This document shows, piece after piece, positions 58,744 through 62,510 of a stretch of 64,000 bases of DNA. How positions within the stretch are numbered: the stretch's first letter is position 1; each line of letters opens with the position of its first letter. The notes under the pieces are model-generated. The model saw only the letters and a program-made list of their open reading frames with translations. It was not told the DNA's origin and did no database searches. Made by a program: the position numbers and the translations under genes. The DNA lies in assembly GCF_002217355.1 (NCBI RefSeq), contig NZ_MUHA01000005.1:10612-74611 (forward strand), given 5' to 3'. The stretch is from Flavobacterium oncorhynchi (GTDB lineage: Bacteria; Bacteroidota; Bacteroidia; Flavobacteriales; Flavobacteriaceae).

Positions 58744-59703
58744 TTACAAAGTATAATTCAAATTAATACTCCATCTGTAATTAGCTTCCATGTTGCCATT
58801 TGACAAATGCTGTGTTATTGGAAGCATTGCATTTACACCAATCGAAAATTTATCTTTACCTGCTTCGATGCCAAATTTTCCAAACAAAATATCTCCTGCC
58901 GTATTTGGTAAATCAAGTCCGTGTTGCTTATTAGTTTGATAAACTTCACCCGCAAGTCCTAACTGCGGAACAATTTGAAATTTATTTGCATCAAACAAAT
59001 AGAAAAAAGTACCAGCATAATTAAATTGGTCGCCGTATTGGTAATTTTTACTATTTTCAGTTTTAAAAATATAATTCAAAGTAGTGTTTAGACCTAGATT
59101 TTTGTGTTTGATTACATATTCTGAAACCAAAGGAAAATCCCAGCTTCCTGTTCCTAATTGAAAACTCTGATTTATAGTTCCTAAATTGTTGATTTCTTTG
59201 AATTTTCCTGTCGGAATCTTAACTCCACCTCCTAGATTTATTTTATGAGTAAAAACCGTACTATCTTTTTGAGTTTCATAAACAGTATAAAGTCCCATAA
59301 GAGTCATGTCGCCTAGACCTTCAATGCTTTGTGTACCTGCTGTTAATTGTCTTTCGTGAAAATGATATGGAAGTAAAGCCGAAATCTGAATTTTCTCTGA
59401 AATCGGAATCCTTGCCCAGGCTTGAACAGTATTGAAATTTTCGTCTATCCAAGGGGAATTAGCAAAAATACCATCACGGCTTGTATAGCTTTGTTTAAAA
59501 TAGCGAAGCCCAACAAAATTGTTATTCAACATCGAGCTAAAACCCATGCTTCCGCCGCTTGCAGAGCAACCGCAGGCATCACACTCAAAATCTTCCATTA
59601 GAGCCAAACGCTGAAAGGTGAATGTCGAAATACTGTCTTTTACAGTAGAACTAAAGGCTGAAAATCCAACCAAAAAAGTGCAAACTATTATTAATTTTTT
59701 CAT
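58744..59703 (-). CDS. outer-membrane transporter-like protein with CxxCxC motif
   Basis: Signal peptide (MKKLIIVCTFLVGFSAFSS), then at about residues 40-47 of the mature start a Cys motif ECDACGCSAS, then a barrel-like body (NNFVGLRYFKQSY; ISALLPYHFHERQL; ending WSINLNYTL). Length 319 aa. The barrel resembles the MetA-pathway/SphA-like transporter group. It follows the MbnH gene in the same direction, with a 327-base gap between. A metal-binding mouth is plausible from the Cys motif. Confidence 0.78.
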   Translation of the reverse strand: MKKLIIVCTFLVGFSAFSSTVKDSISTFTFQRLALMEDFECDACGCSASGGSMGFSSMLNNNFVGLRYFKQSYTSRDGIFANSPWIDENFNTVQAWARIPISEKIQISALLPYHFHERQLTAGTQSIEGLGDMTLMGLYTVYETQKDSTVFTHKINLGGGVKIPTGKFKEINNLGTINQSFQLGTGSWDFPLVSEYVIKHKNLGLNTTLNYIFKTENSKNYQYGDQFNYAGTFFYLFDANKFQIVPQLGLAGEVYQTNKQHGLDLPNTAGDILFGKFGIEAGKDKFSIGVNAMLPITQHLSNGNMEANYRWSINLNYTL

Positions 59704-59716
59704 TTTTATTGTTTTT

Positions 59717-59859
59717 AGGAGCTAATCCCGCTTTTCGTTTCAAGCTTTTTTCAAAATCCCATTTTTCTATAAGTTTATAAAGCTTCCGTTGGTCGCTCTA
59801 TAAACTCAAGAAAAATAAGGTCTTTCTTCAAAAAGGCTTTCCACTTCAATCGGGGCTAG
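59717..59859 (-). repeat. TAGCCC...GCTCCT structured element, copy A
   Basis: Read on the minus strand it begins TAGCCCCGATTGAAGTGGAA and ends GCGGGATTAGCTCCT, 13 bases before the ATG of the outer-membrane gene. An inner inverted repeat (AGTTTATAAAGC and GCTCTATAAACT) could fold into a long arm. A relative lies at 61090-61210. Confidence 0.55.
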
Positions 59860-59909
59860 GCGCCTGTTTTCATAAGATTTATTTTTTTGTCATTTTTGAT
59901 AAGGCAATT

Positions 59910-60011
59910 TTGTCATTTCGACGGAGGAGAAATCACACTCGTTGGTCGACAAAGATTTGCGCTTTTCTTTACGGAGTTTCTAGTGTGATTTCTCCTTCGT
60001 CGAAATGACAA
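59910..60011. repeat. palindromic repeat, GTCATTTCGA family, copy 2
   Basis: Arms opening TTGTCATTTCGACGGAGGAG and closing CTCCTTCGTCGAAATGACAA, internal AGTGTGATTT and TCGACAAAGATT shared with copy 1. Placed just past the MbnH stop. Confidence 0.88.
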
Positions 60012-60030
60012 ACTTTAATGATGTACTTTG

Positions 60031-61071
60031 TCAAAATTCCGAGAAACGTTTATCTGTCAAATACTGATTATCTGTCAGTGTTTTTAGAAAAGCGATTATT
60101 TGTGTTTTTTCTGTAGCAGAAAGCGCAATTCCAAATTTTCCATTCTGTTTTAAAATTGGATCTAAAGTTGGAGAATCTTCAATTCCGCTTGCGTAATGAT
60201 CTAGAACACCTTCCAGAGTTCCAAATCTTCCATCGTGCATATAGGGAGCAGAAACTTCTACATTTCGTAAACTCGGCACTTTAAATTTGTAATAATCACT
60301 CTTCAGTTCTGTTACTCTATAACGTCCAATATCATTAACGGCTGGATTTACTGCTAAACCATTATTTCGGAACGAATTATCAGTCTGTAAATCTGTTGCA
60401 TGACATGAGGCACATTTTGATTTGAACAAATCGTAACCTGCCAATTCATCAGAAGTCAAAGTTCCGCCGGTTTCATTTCGTCTGTATTTATCAAATTTTG
60501 AATTTGATGAAACCACCATAACCATAAATTGAGAAAGGGCTTTCAGCATATTTTCGGTTGTAATGGCACCATCATCAAAAGCCTGCCCAAATAGTTTTTG
60601 ATATTCCTTATCGGCTTTCATCATTTTTAGAATCGCATTTAAATCACCATTCATTTCGATCACACTTTTAAGCGGAATCAGCGGCTGTAAGTCTAAATGG
60701 TCGGCAGCACCGTCGTACATAAAAGCAGTTTGAAACCCTAGGTTTTGAATGGATGGTGTATTTCGTGTTCCCTGAGCATTGTCTACACCATGACTTACAG
60801 TATGTCCGTGATGCGTAAAGGCATTTGCTTGAATATGACAGAAACCGCAGGAAACTACTCCGTCAGATGCTAAACGTCCATCGTAGAATAATTTTTTTCC
60901 TAGTTCGAATCCTTTTACTGTTGGCGGATTTAAGGCAATATTATAAGCAAGATCTGGAAAGTTTGACGGAACTTTAAATTCCAGCGGTACATTTATATAT
61001 TCGTCATCTTGATCTGAGCAGCTCCATAATAATGGAATGATCAGCCAAAGAAAATATTTTATTTTCAACAT
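60031..61071 (-). CDS. di-heme cytochrome c peroxidase-like lipoprotein (MbnH/MauG type)
   Basis: Lipoprotein signal with Cys18 (LLWSCSDQ). Two c-type haem sites: C75-GF-C78-H79 and C220-AS-C223-H224. The C-terminal YMHDGRFGTLEGVLDHY is typical of the CCP/MauG fold. Start is the ATG at 61071 (346 aa); the frame is open 8 codons up. Next to an MbnP-type protein it is best seen as MbnH, which in methanotrophs oxidises a Trp of MbnP. A plain peroxidase role is the alternative. Confidence 0.88.
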   Translation of the reverse strand: MLKIKYFLWLIIPLLWSCSDQDDEYINVPLEFKVPSNFPDLAYNIALNPPTVKGFELGKKLFYDGRLASDGVVSCGFCHIQANAFTHHGHTVSHGVDNAQGTRNTPSIQNLGFQTAFMYDGAADHLDLQPLIPLKSVIEMNGDLNAILKMMKADKEYQKLFGQAFDDGAITTENMLKALSQFMVMVVSSNSKFDKYRRNETGGTLTSDELAGYDLFKSKCASCHATDLQTDNSFRNNGLAVNPAVNDIGRYRVTELKSDYYKFKVPSLRNVEVSAPYMHDGRFGTLEGVLDHYASGIEDSPTLDPILKQNGKFGIALSATEKTQIIAFLKTLTDNQYLTDKRFSEF

Positions 61072-61089
61072 GTTTTTTTGGGTTTTAAG

Positions 61090-61210
61090 AAGCACAAAAG
61101 GTGTTTTTTAGCCCTGACAGCAGTGATATCCTTTTACGGCGGTGTTCGCCGTGAAAGATTTAACGGATGGCAGGACGAGTGGTCTGTTAAACCATAACTT
61201 TTGTGCTCCT
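61090..61210 (+). repeat. TAGCCC...GCTCCT structured element, copy B
   Basis: Bounded by a 10-bp inverted repeat AGCACAAAAG and CTTTTGTGCT. Inside are TAGCCCTGACAGCAGTGATA, a perfect ACGGCGG TGTT CGCCGT hairpin and a GGATGGCAGGAC segment, ending GTGCTCCT. It shares the TAGCCCYGA and GCTCCT ends with copy A but lies on the other strand. It spans the MbnP-MbnH gap. Confidence 0.55.
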
Positions 61211-61220
61211 GAAAATAAGT

Positions 61221-62024
61221 TTAGTCGTTATGTACGTGATCTACTCTAAACATTGCAGAGATGTTTTGAGTAATTAATGGCAAATTAGCACCGCCCATAA
61301 TCATCGCACCCATTCCGCCCATGTTGTTGTCAGAAAGTTTGATTTTGTTTTTTCCGTCGATAATTTTCGAAAGATCTGTGATAATGTGTACAGCAGGAGT
61401 AATGTTTGTACGAACTAAAGCTTTTGTTGGAAGATCTAGCGTTACTTCGGTATAATTGTAATCAGTTCCCGTTTTTCCAGTGTGAATCATAAATGGAGTA
61501 GCAGTTGTAACAGTCGACGAAGTAAAAGTACCTTCAAGAGCTAGAAATTTATATCCGGCAGCCCATGACCACATCATTCCGGCGGCATCGGCTTGCGCTA
61601 AGAAATCACCTTGTCCTGCAGCGCCTAATTTCCATTGCTCTTCGTCAACTCCAATTCCGAATTTTACTTTTGTGTAGTCTCCAGCAGGAATATCAGCAAG
61701 TTGAAATTGCTGTCCAGCTGCAGTAGATTCATCTGCAATAAAGTAGCTTTTGCTTTTTGGGTATGTAAAAGTGGTTCCGTCTGCTTTTGTAAAAACAACA
61801 TTGCTGACAATATATTTTACAAGACTAATTTTTAATACTTCATTGTTAGAAGTTGTGTTTCCTTGTGTGCTTAAAATTAAATCGTTTGCTCCGTAAGCAT
61901 TGTCAAATTTTAAAGTGATTTTTCCGTTTCCTGTAATCGTTTCGTTGTTATCATCGCTTGAACAAGAAAATAAAGATATAGATAGTGTTACAATAGCTAA
62001 AGCTCTGTATAAAGTATTTTTCAT
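61221..62024 (-). CDS. MbnP-family copper-binding lipoprotein
   Basis: Lipobox with Cys21 (ISLFSCSSDD), then the MbnP-type body: ITLKFDNAYGANDL, KYIVSNVVFTKADGT, KFGIGVDEEQ and MMWSWAAGYKFLALEG (W152 and W154), with PFMIHTGKTG and the C-terminal RVDHVHND. The Trp pair is the best candidate for modification by the neighbouring di-haem enzyme. Start ATG at 62024 gives 267 aa; an open frame continues 15 codons up without a leader. Confidence 0.85.
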   Translation of the reverse strand: MKNTLYRALAIVTLSISLFSCSSDDNNETITGNGKITLKFDNAYGANDLILSTQGNTTSNNEVLKISLVKYIVSNVVFTKADGTTFTYPKSKSYFIADESTAAGQQFQLADIPAGDYTKVKFGIGVDEEQWKLGAAGQGDFLAQADAAGMMWSWAAGYKFLALEGTFTSSTVTTATPFMIHTGKTGTDYNYTEVTLDLPTKALVRTNITPAVHIITDLSKIIDGKNKIKLSDNNMGGMGAMIMGGANLPLITQNISAMFRVDHVHND

Positions 62025-62132
62025 TTTTATGAGTTTTATATAATTTAAATTTGAGATGTGCGTAAGCACGTTTCATTGCTTTTGGGCAATAAAAATGATT
62101 TCAATTGTAAAATTGAAAATAGATTTAAAAAA

Positions 62133-62510
62133 TTATATAAAATAGGATGGAGGGCGAAACGAAGTGTTCGAAACCGAAACAGGTTTTTGGTCTAAAACAG
62201 AAAAGTTTTGTGTTTTAGTTTTAATAGGCACTATTAAGCTGTAAGGTGCTGTAATTGTATTTTGAATATAAACAATCTCTGATTTTTCTTTAAGATTGTT
62301 CTCCATTTTTTTCTCGTTATCGGCGTATTTTTTCAAGCTTTTTTGAAGCTCGCATCGACCGTTACAGGTATTGAAAACTTGTTTACGCTGTACACAAATG
62401 GTTTTTATAATTTCCTCCTGATTCAGTTTGAAATTAGTGTAAACAAAGAAATTGCCAAAAGATGGCAGTAAAAGTATACCGGAAAGTAATATGATGAAGA
62501 TATTCTTCAA
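62133..62510 (-). CDS. small Cys-rich membrane protein of the MbnP locus
   Basis: I place the start at TTG 62510 (KNIFIILLSGILLLPSFGNF), giving 125 aa; the frame is open to 62645, but a TACTTTTG element at 62535-62542 lies inside that extension. One membrane or signal segment (5-25) is followed by a Cys group CVQRKQVFNTCNGRCELQKS with three Cys in 16 residues, then a Lys-rich helix. I know such proteins only as neighbours of Bacteroidota metal loci. Metal handling is inferred. Confidence 0.7.
   Translation of the reverse strand: MKNIFIILLSGILLLPSFGNFFVYTNFKLNQEEIIKTICVQRKQVFNTCNGRCELQKSLKKYADNEKKMENNLKEKSEIVYIQNTITAPYSLIVPIKTKTQNFSVLDQKPVSVSNTSFRPPSYFI

What the first reader, a model, noticed from the sequence alone, without database searches (positions are those of the whole stretch)
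58744..62510. MbnP/MbnH locus with two Cys-motif partners, without methanobactin genes
Four minus-strand genes: a small membrane protein with three Cys in 16 residues, an MbnP-type lipoprotein with the MMWSWAAGYKF segment, a di-haem MbnH/MauG-type lipoprotein, and an outer-membrane barrel with a CxxCxC motif behind its signal peptide. In methanotrophs MbnH oxidises a Trp of MbnP to kynurenine to create a copper site. No methanobactin synthesis gene is in the window. So this may be a copper acquisition or storage system in which the barrel takes the receptor role. The grouping and the motifs are seen; the copper role is inference.
Basis: partly seen in the sequence, partly recalled or inferred. 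Interest (0 to 1): 0.72.

Follow-up and report, generated by a model that had tools for sequence, protein, structure and literature searches.

The report
Kynurenine-copper cassette with Cys-tagged barrel
Many Bacteroidota carry a conserved four-gene set that probably builds an unusual copper site on a surface protein and hands the copper to a new kind of outer-membrane channel, without the methanobactin compound this protein pair is best known from.

Summary
In detail: the genes form a conserved cassette, C (small Cys protein) - MbnP - MbnH - barrel. In 199 genomes of the window's family the barrel occurs in 30, always beside MbnH. Barrel CxxCxC and C-protein C-x9-C-x-G-x-C are essentially invariant.

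MbnP-MbnH pairs outside methanobactin operons are known (PMC3621798). Beyond that: (1) in two lineages without mbnH at the locus, MbnP lost both the Trp aligned with the kynurenine precursor and a conserved His; MbnPs beside mbnH keep that Trp with one exception. (2) Barrel-linked MbnPs carry extra His (46 of 48 against 1-3 of 51); a clade with a TonB-copper-like receptor instead of the barrel lacks them. (3) C genes precede outer-membrane receptors or channels in 41 of 42 other loci.

Best reading: copper capture by a surface lipoprotein with an MbnH-made kynurenine site, passed to a channel with a Cys-bearing N-terminal segment. Kynurenine, copper, direction and Cys roles are inferred. Against: the interheme Trp is Tyr here, the presumed Met ligand is Leu in 11 of 82 named MbnPs, and both proteins score below the TIGR equivalog cut-offs.

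The parts
62133..62510 (-). C: small protein with a hydrophobic N-terminus (by eye), 125 aa, motif C39-x9-C49-x-G-x-C53 and C-terminal PP
   Evidence: ORF; C39, C49, G51, C53, P120, P121 invariant in 39 homologues, the same six in 70 of 70; no curated family at E<=1e-3
61221..62024 (-). MbnP-like lipoprotein (PF20243), mature N-terminus CSSDDNN
   Evidence: PF20243 149.9 bits; AF2 model pLDDT 90, only strong PDB match 7l6g MbnP, Z 17.0, rmsd 3.3, 215 aligned
61545..61577 (-). M-x-W-x-W-x-x-G-Y-x-F segment with the candidate kynurenine Trp (W152 of 267; codon 61569-61571)
   Evidence: M165, W167, W169 47/48, 48/48, 48/48 in barrel-context MbnP
61482..61484 (-). His aligned with the His of HVGS in 7l6g (H196 in GTG numbering), candidate Cu ligand
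   Evidence: 99 of 99 MbnP loci; alignments
61386..61388 (-). barrel-associated His (H228)
   Evidence: 46 of 48 barrel-context, 3 of 51 others
61230..61238 (-). barrel-associated C-terminal H-x-H (H278, H280)
   Evidence: 46 of 48 barrel-context, 1 of 51 others
60031..61071 (-). MbnH/MauG-type di-haem lipoprotein, mature N-terminus CSDQDDE
   Evidence: PF03150 166.5 bits; TIGR04039 214.7 bits, below its 362.85 cut-off; 6e1c E 4.7e-42
60835..60849 (-). first haem motif CGFCH
   Evidence: sequence
60400..60414 (-). second haem motif CASCH
   Evidence: sequence
60715..60717 (-). Tyr at the interheme position (Trp in 6e1c and 1iqc)
60193..60195 (-). Tyr at the axial position (Tyr in 6e1c, Met in the peroxidase 1iqc)
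   Evidence: 48 of 48 barrel-context MbnH
58744..59703 (-). outer-membrane beta-barrel, 319 aa
   Evidence: AF2 pLDDT 82.4; 5o65 FapF Z 24.9 and 4rl8 COG4313 channel Z 24.1
59566..59583 (-). CDACGC: CxxCxC motif in the low-confidence N-terminal segment before strand 1
   Evidence: C41 49/49, C44 49/49, C46 48/49; residues 16-51 pLDDT under 50

Best explanation
A copper-acquisition cassette of the cell surface. MbnP and MbnH are lipoproteins with acidic Bacteroidota-type export signals (predicted surface exposed). MbnH, with a MauG-type Tyr at the axial position of its second haem, oxidises the first Trp of MbnP's M-x-W-x-W to kynurenine, which with the conserved His (and the Met, where present) gives a Cu(I) site, as in Methylosinus MbnP. 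A second His cluster (H228, H278, H280), found almost only where the barrel is present, would pass copper to, or dock on, the barrel, whose CxxCxC N-terminal segment would be a Cu(I)-binding gate in or under the channel. On the inner side the small C-x9-C-x-G-x-C protein would take copper over. Shown here: gene linkage, motif conservation, fold, the co-absence of mbnH and the Trp/His site, and the barrel-versus-receptor contrast in the extra His. Inferred: kynurenine itself, copper as the metal, surface location, direction (uptake) and every hand-off step.
For: Linkage: MbnH beside MbnP in 99 of 99 loci; barrel beside MbnH in 30 of 30 genomes. Kyn site: M/W/W/H conserved and aligned with 7l6g; fold Z 17.0. 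Natural deletions: L231 and L234 show no mbnH in the fetched stretch, and both MbnPs lost the first Trp and H196 but keep W169 and the His cluster; the barrel tree forces two separate changes. All 82 other named MbnPs keep W-x-W. DNA-pattern test: W-x-W-x-x-G-Y in 0 of 5 further mbnH-less places and 8 of 10 places with mbnH; a sixth mbnH-less place (G548:C130) has it. Receptor slot: eight TonB-context MbnPs form one clade nested in barrel-context ones (100/99, 100/94); 41 of 42 other C genes precede a TonB receptor or barrel-like gene. Copper: the L101 receptor's best NCBIfam model is TIGR01778 TonB-copper, below cut-off; this genome's second C sits with such a receptor next to NosZ and NosD. 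Export signals resemble F. johnsoniae SDDFE (PMC5080379 passages).
Against: The interheme residue is Tyr in the window and in 57 of 61 readable named MbnHs (21 more unread); it is Trp in 39 of 48 barrel-context MbnHs of the other set, and BthA works with Ser there (PMC6405878 passages). The presumed Met ligand is Leu in 11 of 82 named MbnPs that have W-x-W. Six tandem second MbnPs have their own MbnH and W-x-W but no His at the usual place. Scores are below the TIGR04052 and TIGR04039 cut-offs and the four-Cys feature is missing. Some C-led operons, including the module beside the cassette in relatives, carry a siderophore-like TonB receptor and a PepSY protein. The pair test for barrel with H-x-H goes the same way in 3.5 of 4 pairs but cannot reach significance. 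No copper regulator was identified; the palindrome enriched before C genes is absent before this one. CorB, a counterpart of MbnH, is described as mainly periplasmic.
Confidence: 0.52

Rival explanations
1. Copper defence or sensing: the Kyn-copper lipoprotein buffers copper at the surface and the barrel exports or leaks it, so the cassette protects rather than feeds.
For: The barrel has COG4313/FapF-type similarity and its direction cannot be read from sequence; another MbnPH class lies just upstream of Fe-S assembly genes sufA/sufB, a pathway that copper damages (general knowledge).
Against: A TonB-copper-like receptor, an uptake-type protein, stands in for the barrel in one clade; C genes precede receptor genes. 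Methanotroph counterparts CorA and MopE are copper-repressed (PMC3912023 passages).
Confidence: 0.2
2. An iron (or other metal or siderophore) system in which MbnH makes a modification of MbnP that is not used for copper.
For: The adjoining C-TonB-PepSY module in relatives (L147) scores best to siderophore receptors (TIGR01783 181.8 bits, cut-off 223.5) and PepSY_TM; the Met of the copper signature is not strictly kept.
Against: Trp, Trp and His of the copper protein are kept in 48 of 48 barrel-context MbnPs, and the receptor in the barrel-less clade scores best to TonB-copper (L101).
Confidence: 0.17
3. Ordinary peroxidase with an unrelated neighbour lipoprotein; linkage reflects shared expression only.
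For: MbnH scores well to bacterial peroxidases too (1iqc E 6.4e-36), and the window's enzyme lacks the interheme Trp.
Against: The axial position is Tyr (48 of 48) where the peroxidase has Met; absence of mbnH goes with loss of the Trp and His in MbnP in two lineages.
Confidence: 0.07

Closest known systems
MbnP-MbnH pair of methanotrophs (7l6g MbnP; 6e1c, named only 'Di-heme enzyme')
   Same: Adjacent genes; PF20243 fold (Z 17.0); M-x-W-x-W and His aligned; Tyr at the axial position
   Different: Two extra constant partners (C protein, CxxCxC barrel); no four-Cys motif; extra H228/H-x-H; interheme Tyr instead of Trp; scores under the TIGR cut-offs
CorA-CorB / MopE-SACCP (surface copper proteins with kynurenine and their di-haem partners)
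   Same: Surface copper protein with a di-haem partner gene; kynurenine at the copper site, proposed to be made by the partner (PMC3912023, PMC3621798 passages)
   Different: MbnP is not markedly similar in sequence to MopE or CorA (PMC3621798); no barrel partner named in the passages I saw
COG4313 outer-membrane channel (4rl8) and FapF (5o65)
   Same: Barrel fold, Z 24.1 and 24.9; in 4rl8, a 12-stranded barrel, the N-terminal segment fills the lumen (PMC4493636 passages)
   Different: No sequence-family match; the N-terminal segment carries CxxCxC; the model lists 13-14 strand segments, so the strand number is not settled; proposed cargo is copper
TonB-copper-like receptor loci with C, a ~307-residue lipoprotein, MbnP and MbnH (L101 and relatives)
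   Same: C gene in front; same slot beside MbnP-MbnH in one nested clade; the lipoprotein has a sub-threshold YtkA match (21.8 bits, cut-off 25.9)
   Different: TonB-type receptor instead of a small barrel; MbnP lacks the extra His; MbnH has Phe or Leu at the axial position in 8 of 9

Membership tests
MbnP (Pfam PF20243) | score over the curated cut-off | tested here: met
   149.9 bits against 27
MbnP (NCBIfam TIGR04052; PDB entry name 'four-Cys motif protein') | score over 140 bits; four conserved Cys | tested here: not met
   43.2 bits; the only Cys is the lipobox one
Kynurenine-copper MbnP | Met-x-Trp-x-Trp and His in register with 7l6g | tested here: met
   that these are the ligands and that the first Trp becomes Kyn is recalled from the 7l6g paper, which was not held
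Kynurenine-copper MbnP | Trp oxidised to Kyn and Cu(I) bound | not testable with these tools
   needs mass spectrometry and metal analysis
MbnH (TIGR04039) | score over 362.85 bits | tested here: not met
   214.7 bits, though the best NCBIfam model
MauG/MbnH-type di-haem enzyme | Tyr, not Met, at the axial position of the second haem | tested here: met
   Tyr in the window and 48 of 48 barrel-context MbnHs; 6e1c Tyr, 1iqc Met
MauG/MbnH-type di-haem enzyme | Trp between the haems | tested here: not met
   Tyr in the window; Trp 39, Tyr 7, Phe 1, Ala 1 of 48 barrel-context; BthA lacks it too
Methanobactin operon | mbnA/mbnB/mbnC nearby | not tested
   only the flanking ORFs were looked at by eye: SecA-like upstream, RNA-methyltransferase-like downstream
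COG4313 / Phenol_MetA_deg channels | fold | tested here: met
   4rl8 Z 24.1, rmsd 2.9, 247 aligned
COG4313 / Phenol_MetA_deg channels | Pfam sequence match | tested here: not met
   no Pfam family at E<=1
PcoB copper channel | fold match above the general barrel background | tested here: inconclusive
   7pge Z 12.2, below many unrelated barrels
CorA/MopE | sequence or fold match | tested here: inconclusive
   not among the rows

The most novel reading that the evidence does not exclude
A TonB-independent outer-membrane copper import route: a di-haem enzyme writes a kynurenine copper site into a surface lipoprotein, which feeds a dedicated channel gated by a CxxCxC segment through a second, barrel-associated His site, with a C-x9-C-x-G-x-C protein receiving the metal inside. 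The channel and the Cys protein would be founding members of new families of copper carriers across Bacteroidota.
Probability: 0.3. Interest if true: 0.85.

Novelty: new variant of a known kind. Interest (0 to 1): 0.62.

Why it matters
How copper crosses the bacterial outer membrane without methanobactin is poorly known. This cassette names two unannotated partners with near-invariant Cys for the MbnP-MbnH pair in a very large bacterial group, and nature offers the key contrasts: loci without the modifying enzyme have also lost the residues it should act on, and loci with a receptor in place of the barrel lack the barrel-associated His. That makes the function of the widespread pair directly testable in an easily grown genus.

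Tried and rejected
Searches that led nowhere: the papers on Methylosinus MbnP and MbnH were not held; 'metallo-mystery' found no paper; MbnP with Bacteroidetes and related terms found only the 2013 genome-mining paper; two searches listed nothing on this cassette. So I do not claim that any part is absent from print: the 2021 neighbourhood analysis (recalled) could not be read. Profiles of the barrel and C protein hit nothing in the PDB at E<=1.

Considered and set aside: weak barrel relatives (at most 88.5 bits) as cassette members; four looked at (L162-L165) have an N-terminal CC instead of CxxCxC, and in four other loci one adjoins a C gene. The palindrome TGAYNNNNRTCA before C genes (40 of 177 upstreams against 89 of 2889 others, spacing controls flat) is not in the 180 bases before the window's own C gene, so it is not used as evidence. 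A regex count of interheme residues left 21 of 82 rows unread, and a second attempt failed on most rows.

Rows dropped or not seen: 100 of about 206 PF20243 places (5 shared) were fetched, mostly the higher scoring; L121 and L123 had no MbnP ORF called and are left out of n=99. Lists are truncated, so no full table of Trp against mbnH was possible for the genus. For the genus, MbnP places (about 146) were compared by eye with MbnH places (E<=1e-50 with the window protein), so a more divergent MbnH would count as absent; besides the six mbnH-less places named, one MbnP fragment at a contig end (G624:C342) was set aside, and a few MbnH matches are broken by stops or partial (G601, G603, G628, G637, G671 and others). 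Whether L231's and L234's genomes have mbnH elsewhere was not tested. Named loci were selected with the barrel, so their linkage is not independent evidence; one search is. My notes give L231's change as Trp to Gly; the alignment shows the first Trp gone with a two-residue insertion.
Full report
WHAT IS THERE. Reading the minus strand from 62510 to 58744: a 125-residue protein with a hydrophobic start and C39, C49 and C53 ('C'); an MbnP-like lipoprotein; a di-haem lipoprotein; and a barrel with CDACGC behind its signal peptide. Pfam gives MbnP 149.9 bits (cut-off 27) and CCP_MauG 166.5 bits. The barrel has no Pfam or NCBIfam hit at E<=1, and C only chance-level ones (E 0.04 and 0.025). TIGR04039 (MbnH family) is the best NCBIfam model for the di-haem protein (214.7 bits, cut-off 362.85); TIGR04052 scores MbnP at 43.2 bits (cut-off 140). 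The genes are not tightly packed here: Flavo-1 RNA elements (RF01705) lie between MbnP and MbnH and between MbnH and the barrel, the latter gap also holding a ~100-bp palindromic repeat with dozens of copies in the genome.

LINKAGE. PF20243 matches in 99 of 199 genomes drawn from the window's family and 78 of 296 from its phylum, and once in the own genome. These groups are unnamed; I take them as Flavobacteriaceae and Bacteroidota from the named relatives (Flavobacterium sp. YO12 and F. plurextorum, 97% barrel identity). I fetched about 18 kb around 100 of roughly 206 such places. In the 99 loci with a called MbnP ORF (window included; two dropped), MbnH is near MbnP on the same strand in 99. 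Contexts: barrel 48, SUF genes 20, TonB-type receptor 9 (one, L133, siderophore-like), YHYH protein 6, other 16. With the barrel profile, 30 of 199 family genomes score 308 bits or more and the next 88.5 or less. In 29 of the 30 MbnP and MbnH lie beside it; the thirtieth is on a 4977-base contig and is preceded by the C-terminal part of MbnH. In 80 named loci found with the barrel, 79 have C, 79 MbnP and 77 MbnH; the usual order is C-MbnP-MbnH-barrel with flanks that change between species.

MOTIFS. Barrel C41 49/49, C44 49/49, C46 48/49; C protein C, C, G, C, PP 70/70. These align with M, W, W and H of 7l6g. That the first Trp becomes kynurenine and that a His and a Met bind copper in 7l6g is recalled from its paper, which I could not open. 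Against a strict copper signature: in the named set 11 of the 82 MbnPs with W-x-W have Leu at the Met position, and six tandem second copies lack the His. SUF-linked MbnPs are a contrast: Trp 19 of 20, but Met 4 of 20 and second Trp 9 of 20. MbnH has Tyr at the axial position where 6e1c has Tyr and the peroxidase 1iqc has Met, 48 of 48; the interheme residue is Tyr here and Trp in 39 of 48, while in the named set 57 of 61 readable rows have Tyr (21 unread). One search names 6e1c only 'Di-heme enzyme'; that it is Methylosinus MbnH is recalled.

NATURAL DELETIONS. L231 (a MAG titled Bacteroidetes bacterium, placed among Flavobacterium on the barrel tree) and L234 (F. zepuense) have C-MbnP-barrel without mbnH: tblastn with the window MbnH finds nothing between MbnP and barrel (elsewhere in those genomes not tested). 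In both, MbnP has lost the first Trp (L231: gone with a two-residue insertion; L234: Ser) and H196 (Tyr in both), yet keeps the second Trp, H228 and the C-terminal H-x-H. The other 82 of 84 named MbnPs keep W-x-W, and the first Trp is kept in 98 of 99 in the other set. The barrel tree forces two separate changes; L234's nearest relative L232 has mbnH and WTW. In eight genus genomes a DNA pattern for W-x-W-x-x-G-Y hit 8 of 10 MbnP places beside mbnH (the two misses, in G663, are tandem copies; tandem copies in named relatives read WMWHTSY) and 0 of 5 places with no mbnH match at E<=1e-50 nearby. A sixth such place, on contig G548:C130 of a 76%-complete genome, does have the pattern; I could not see whether its contig ends before mbnH. 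None of the six is sequence-checked.

BARREL-ASSOCIATED HIS AND THE SWAP. H-x-H in the last 40 residues: 46 of 48 barrel-context, 1 of 51 others; H228: 46 of 48 and 3 of 51. In a 99-row tree (midpoint root), eight of the nine TonB-context MbnPs form one clade (100/100) whose sister is two barrel-context rows (100/99) and then ten Flavobacterium barrel-context rows (100/94). One replacement of barrel by receptor, with loss of the His, is the simplest account there; over the whole tree the barrel label changes at least four times. Independent-pair testing agrees in direction (3.5 of 4 pairs) but has too few pairs for significance.

THE C PROTEIN. It occurs in 116 of 199 family genomes, against 99 for MbnP. 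Of 42 C genes looked at away from the cassette (40 chosen through the truncated list, plus L161 and L167), 41 are followed within two genes by a TonB-receptor homologue or, in four cases, a barrel relative (L273 is the exception). In this genome the second C is followed by a 283-residue protein of no NCBIfam family and a receptor whose best model is TonB-copper (132.3 bits, cut-off 472.45), next to nosZ (936 bits) and nosD (419.7 bits). C thus marks outer-membrane uptake operons, copper-linked ones among them; others look siderophore-like.

STRUCTURE AND PLACE. The barrel model (pLDDT 82.4; 13-14 strand segments) is closest to FapF (Z 24.9) and the COG4313 channel 4rl8 (Z 24.1), ahead of autotransporters (about 19) and PcoB (12.2). 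In 4rl8 the segment before strand 1 fills the lumen of a 12-stranded barrel (PMC4493636, passages); here that segment carries the CxxCxC and is modelled with low confidence. Mature N-termini such as CSSDDD resemble the F. johnsoniae lipoprotein export signal SDDFE (PMC5080379, passages); with a crude lipobox finder that misplaces some rows, 29 of 47 MbnPs and 33 of 48 MbnHs have two or more acidic residues there. So both may be on the cell surface, as reported for CorA and for SACCP with MopE, though CorB is described as mainly periplasmic (PMC3912023, passages).

MECHANISM. Shown: the cassette, its residues, the co-absence of enzyme and target residues, the receptor-for-barrel contrast. Inferred: kynurenine, copper, surface capture, passage MbnP to barrel to C. 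My confidence is about 0.75 for Trp modification by MbnH, 0.7 for copper, 0.55 for uptake, 0.5 for the barrel as conduit.

KNOWN OR NEW. The pair was described beyond methanobactin producers in 2013 (PMC3621798, passages), so the pair is not new. The paper searches made listed nothing on the barrel or C protein, but the library lacks the main papers on this pair, so that is weak evidence. I call it a new variant of a known kind.

Noticed in passing
L061, L078, L080, L090, L095, L100, L102, L104-L110, L112-L117 (20 of 99 MbnP loci): A second MbnP-MbnH class sits upstream of sufA-sufB (family scans run on L109 only; others by phmmer), with a choice-of-anchor-B/T9SS protein in front in L109; its MbnP mostly lacks the Met and in 11 of 20 the second Trp of the copper signature.
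   Followed up: partly
upstream of C genes in many loci; own copy at L161 (G000:C14): Palindrome TGAYNNNNRTCA is enriched before C genes (40 of 177 against 89 of 2889 upstreams, p 2e-20; other spacings flat), often near -47: a candidate regulator site; absent before the window's C gene.
   Followed up: partly
window 61106-61181 (+) and 59720-59861 (-): Two Flavo-1 RNA elements (RF01705, 67.1 and 58.6 bits) lie inside the cassette's intergenic gaps.
   Followed up: no
window about 59904-60016: A ~100-bp palindromic repeat with dozens of copies in this genome separates mbnH from the barrel gene.
   Followed up: no
L089, L092-L094, L148, L152: A third MbnP-MbnH class is followed by a YHYH-domain protein (family scan on L089 only); one supported clade (100/95) spread over several families.
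   Followed up: no
L194, L200, L201, L202, L206, L207: Tandem MbnP-MbnH copies; one MbnP reads WMWHTSY and has no His at the usual place, though it lies beside MbnH.
   Followed up: partly
L096, L097, L099, L101, L103, L133, L155-L157 (TonB-context MbnH): The axial position is Phe or Leu in 8 of 9 of these MbnHs, so their chemistry may differ.
   Followed up: no
L162-L165: Barrel relatives with an N-terminal CCSGG next to a conserved lipoprotein of 355-372 residues; in L162 heavy-metal-type and PepSY-like genes (by eye) are near; possibly another metal channel family.
   Followed up: no
L147, L179, L182-L186 and others against the window: A C-TonB receptor-PepSY module follows the barrel in many close relatives and is absent from the window at the same site (family scans on L147 only).
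   Followed up: partly
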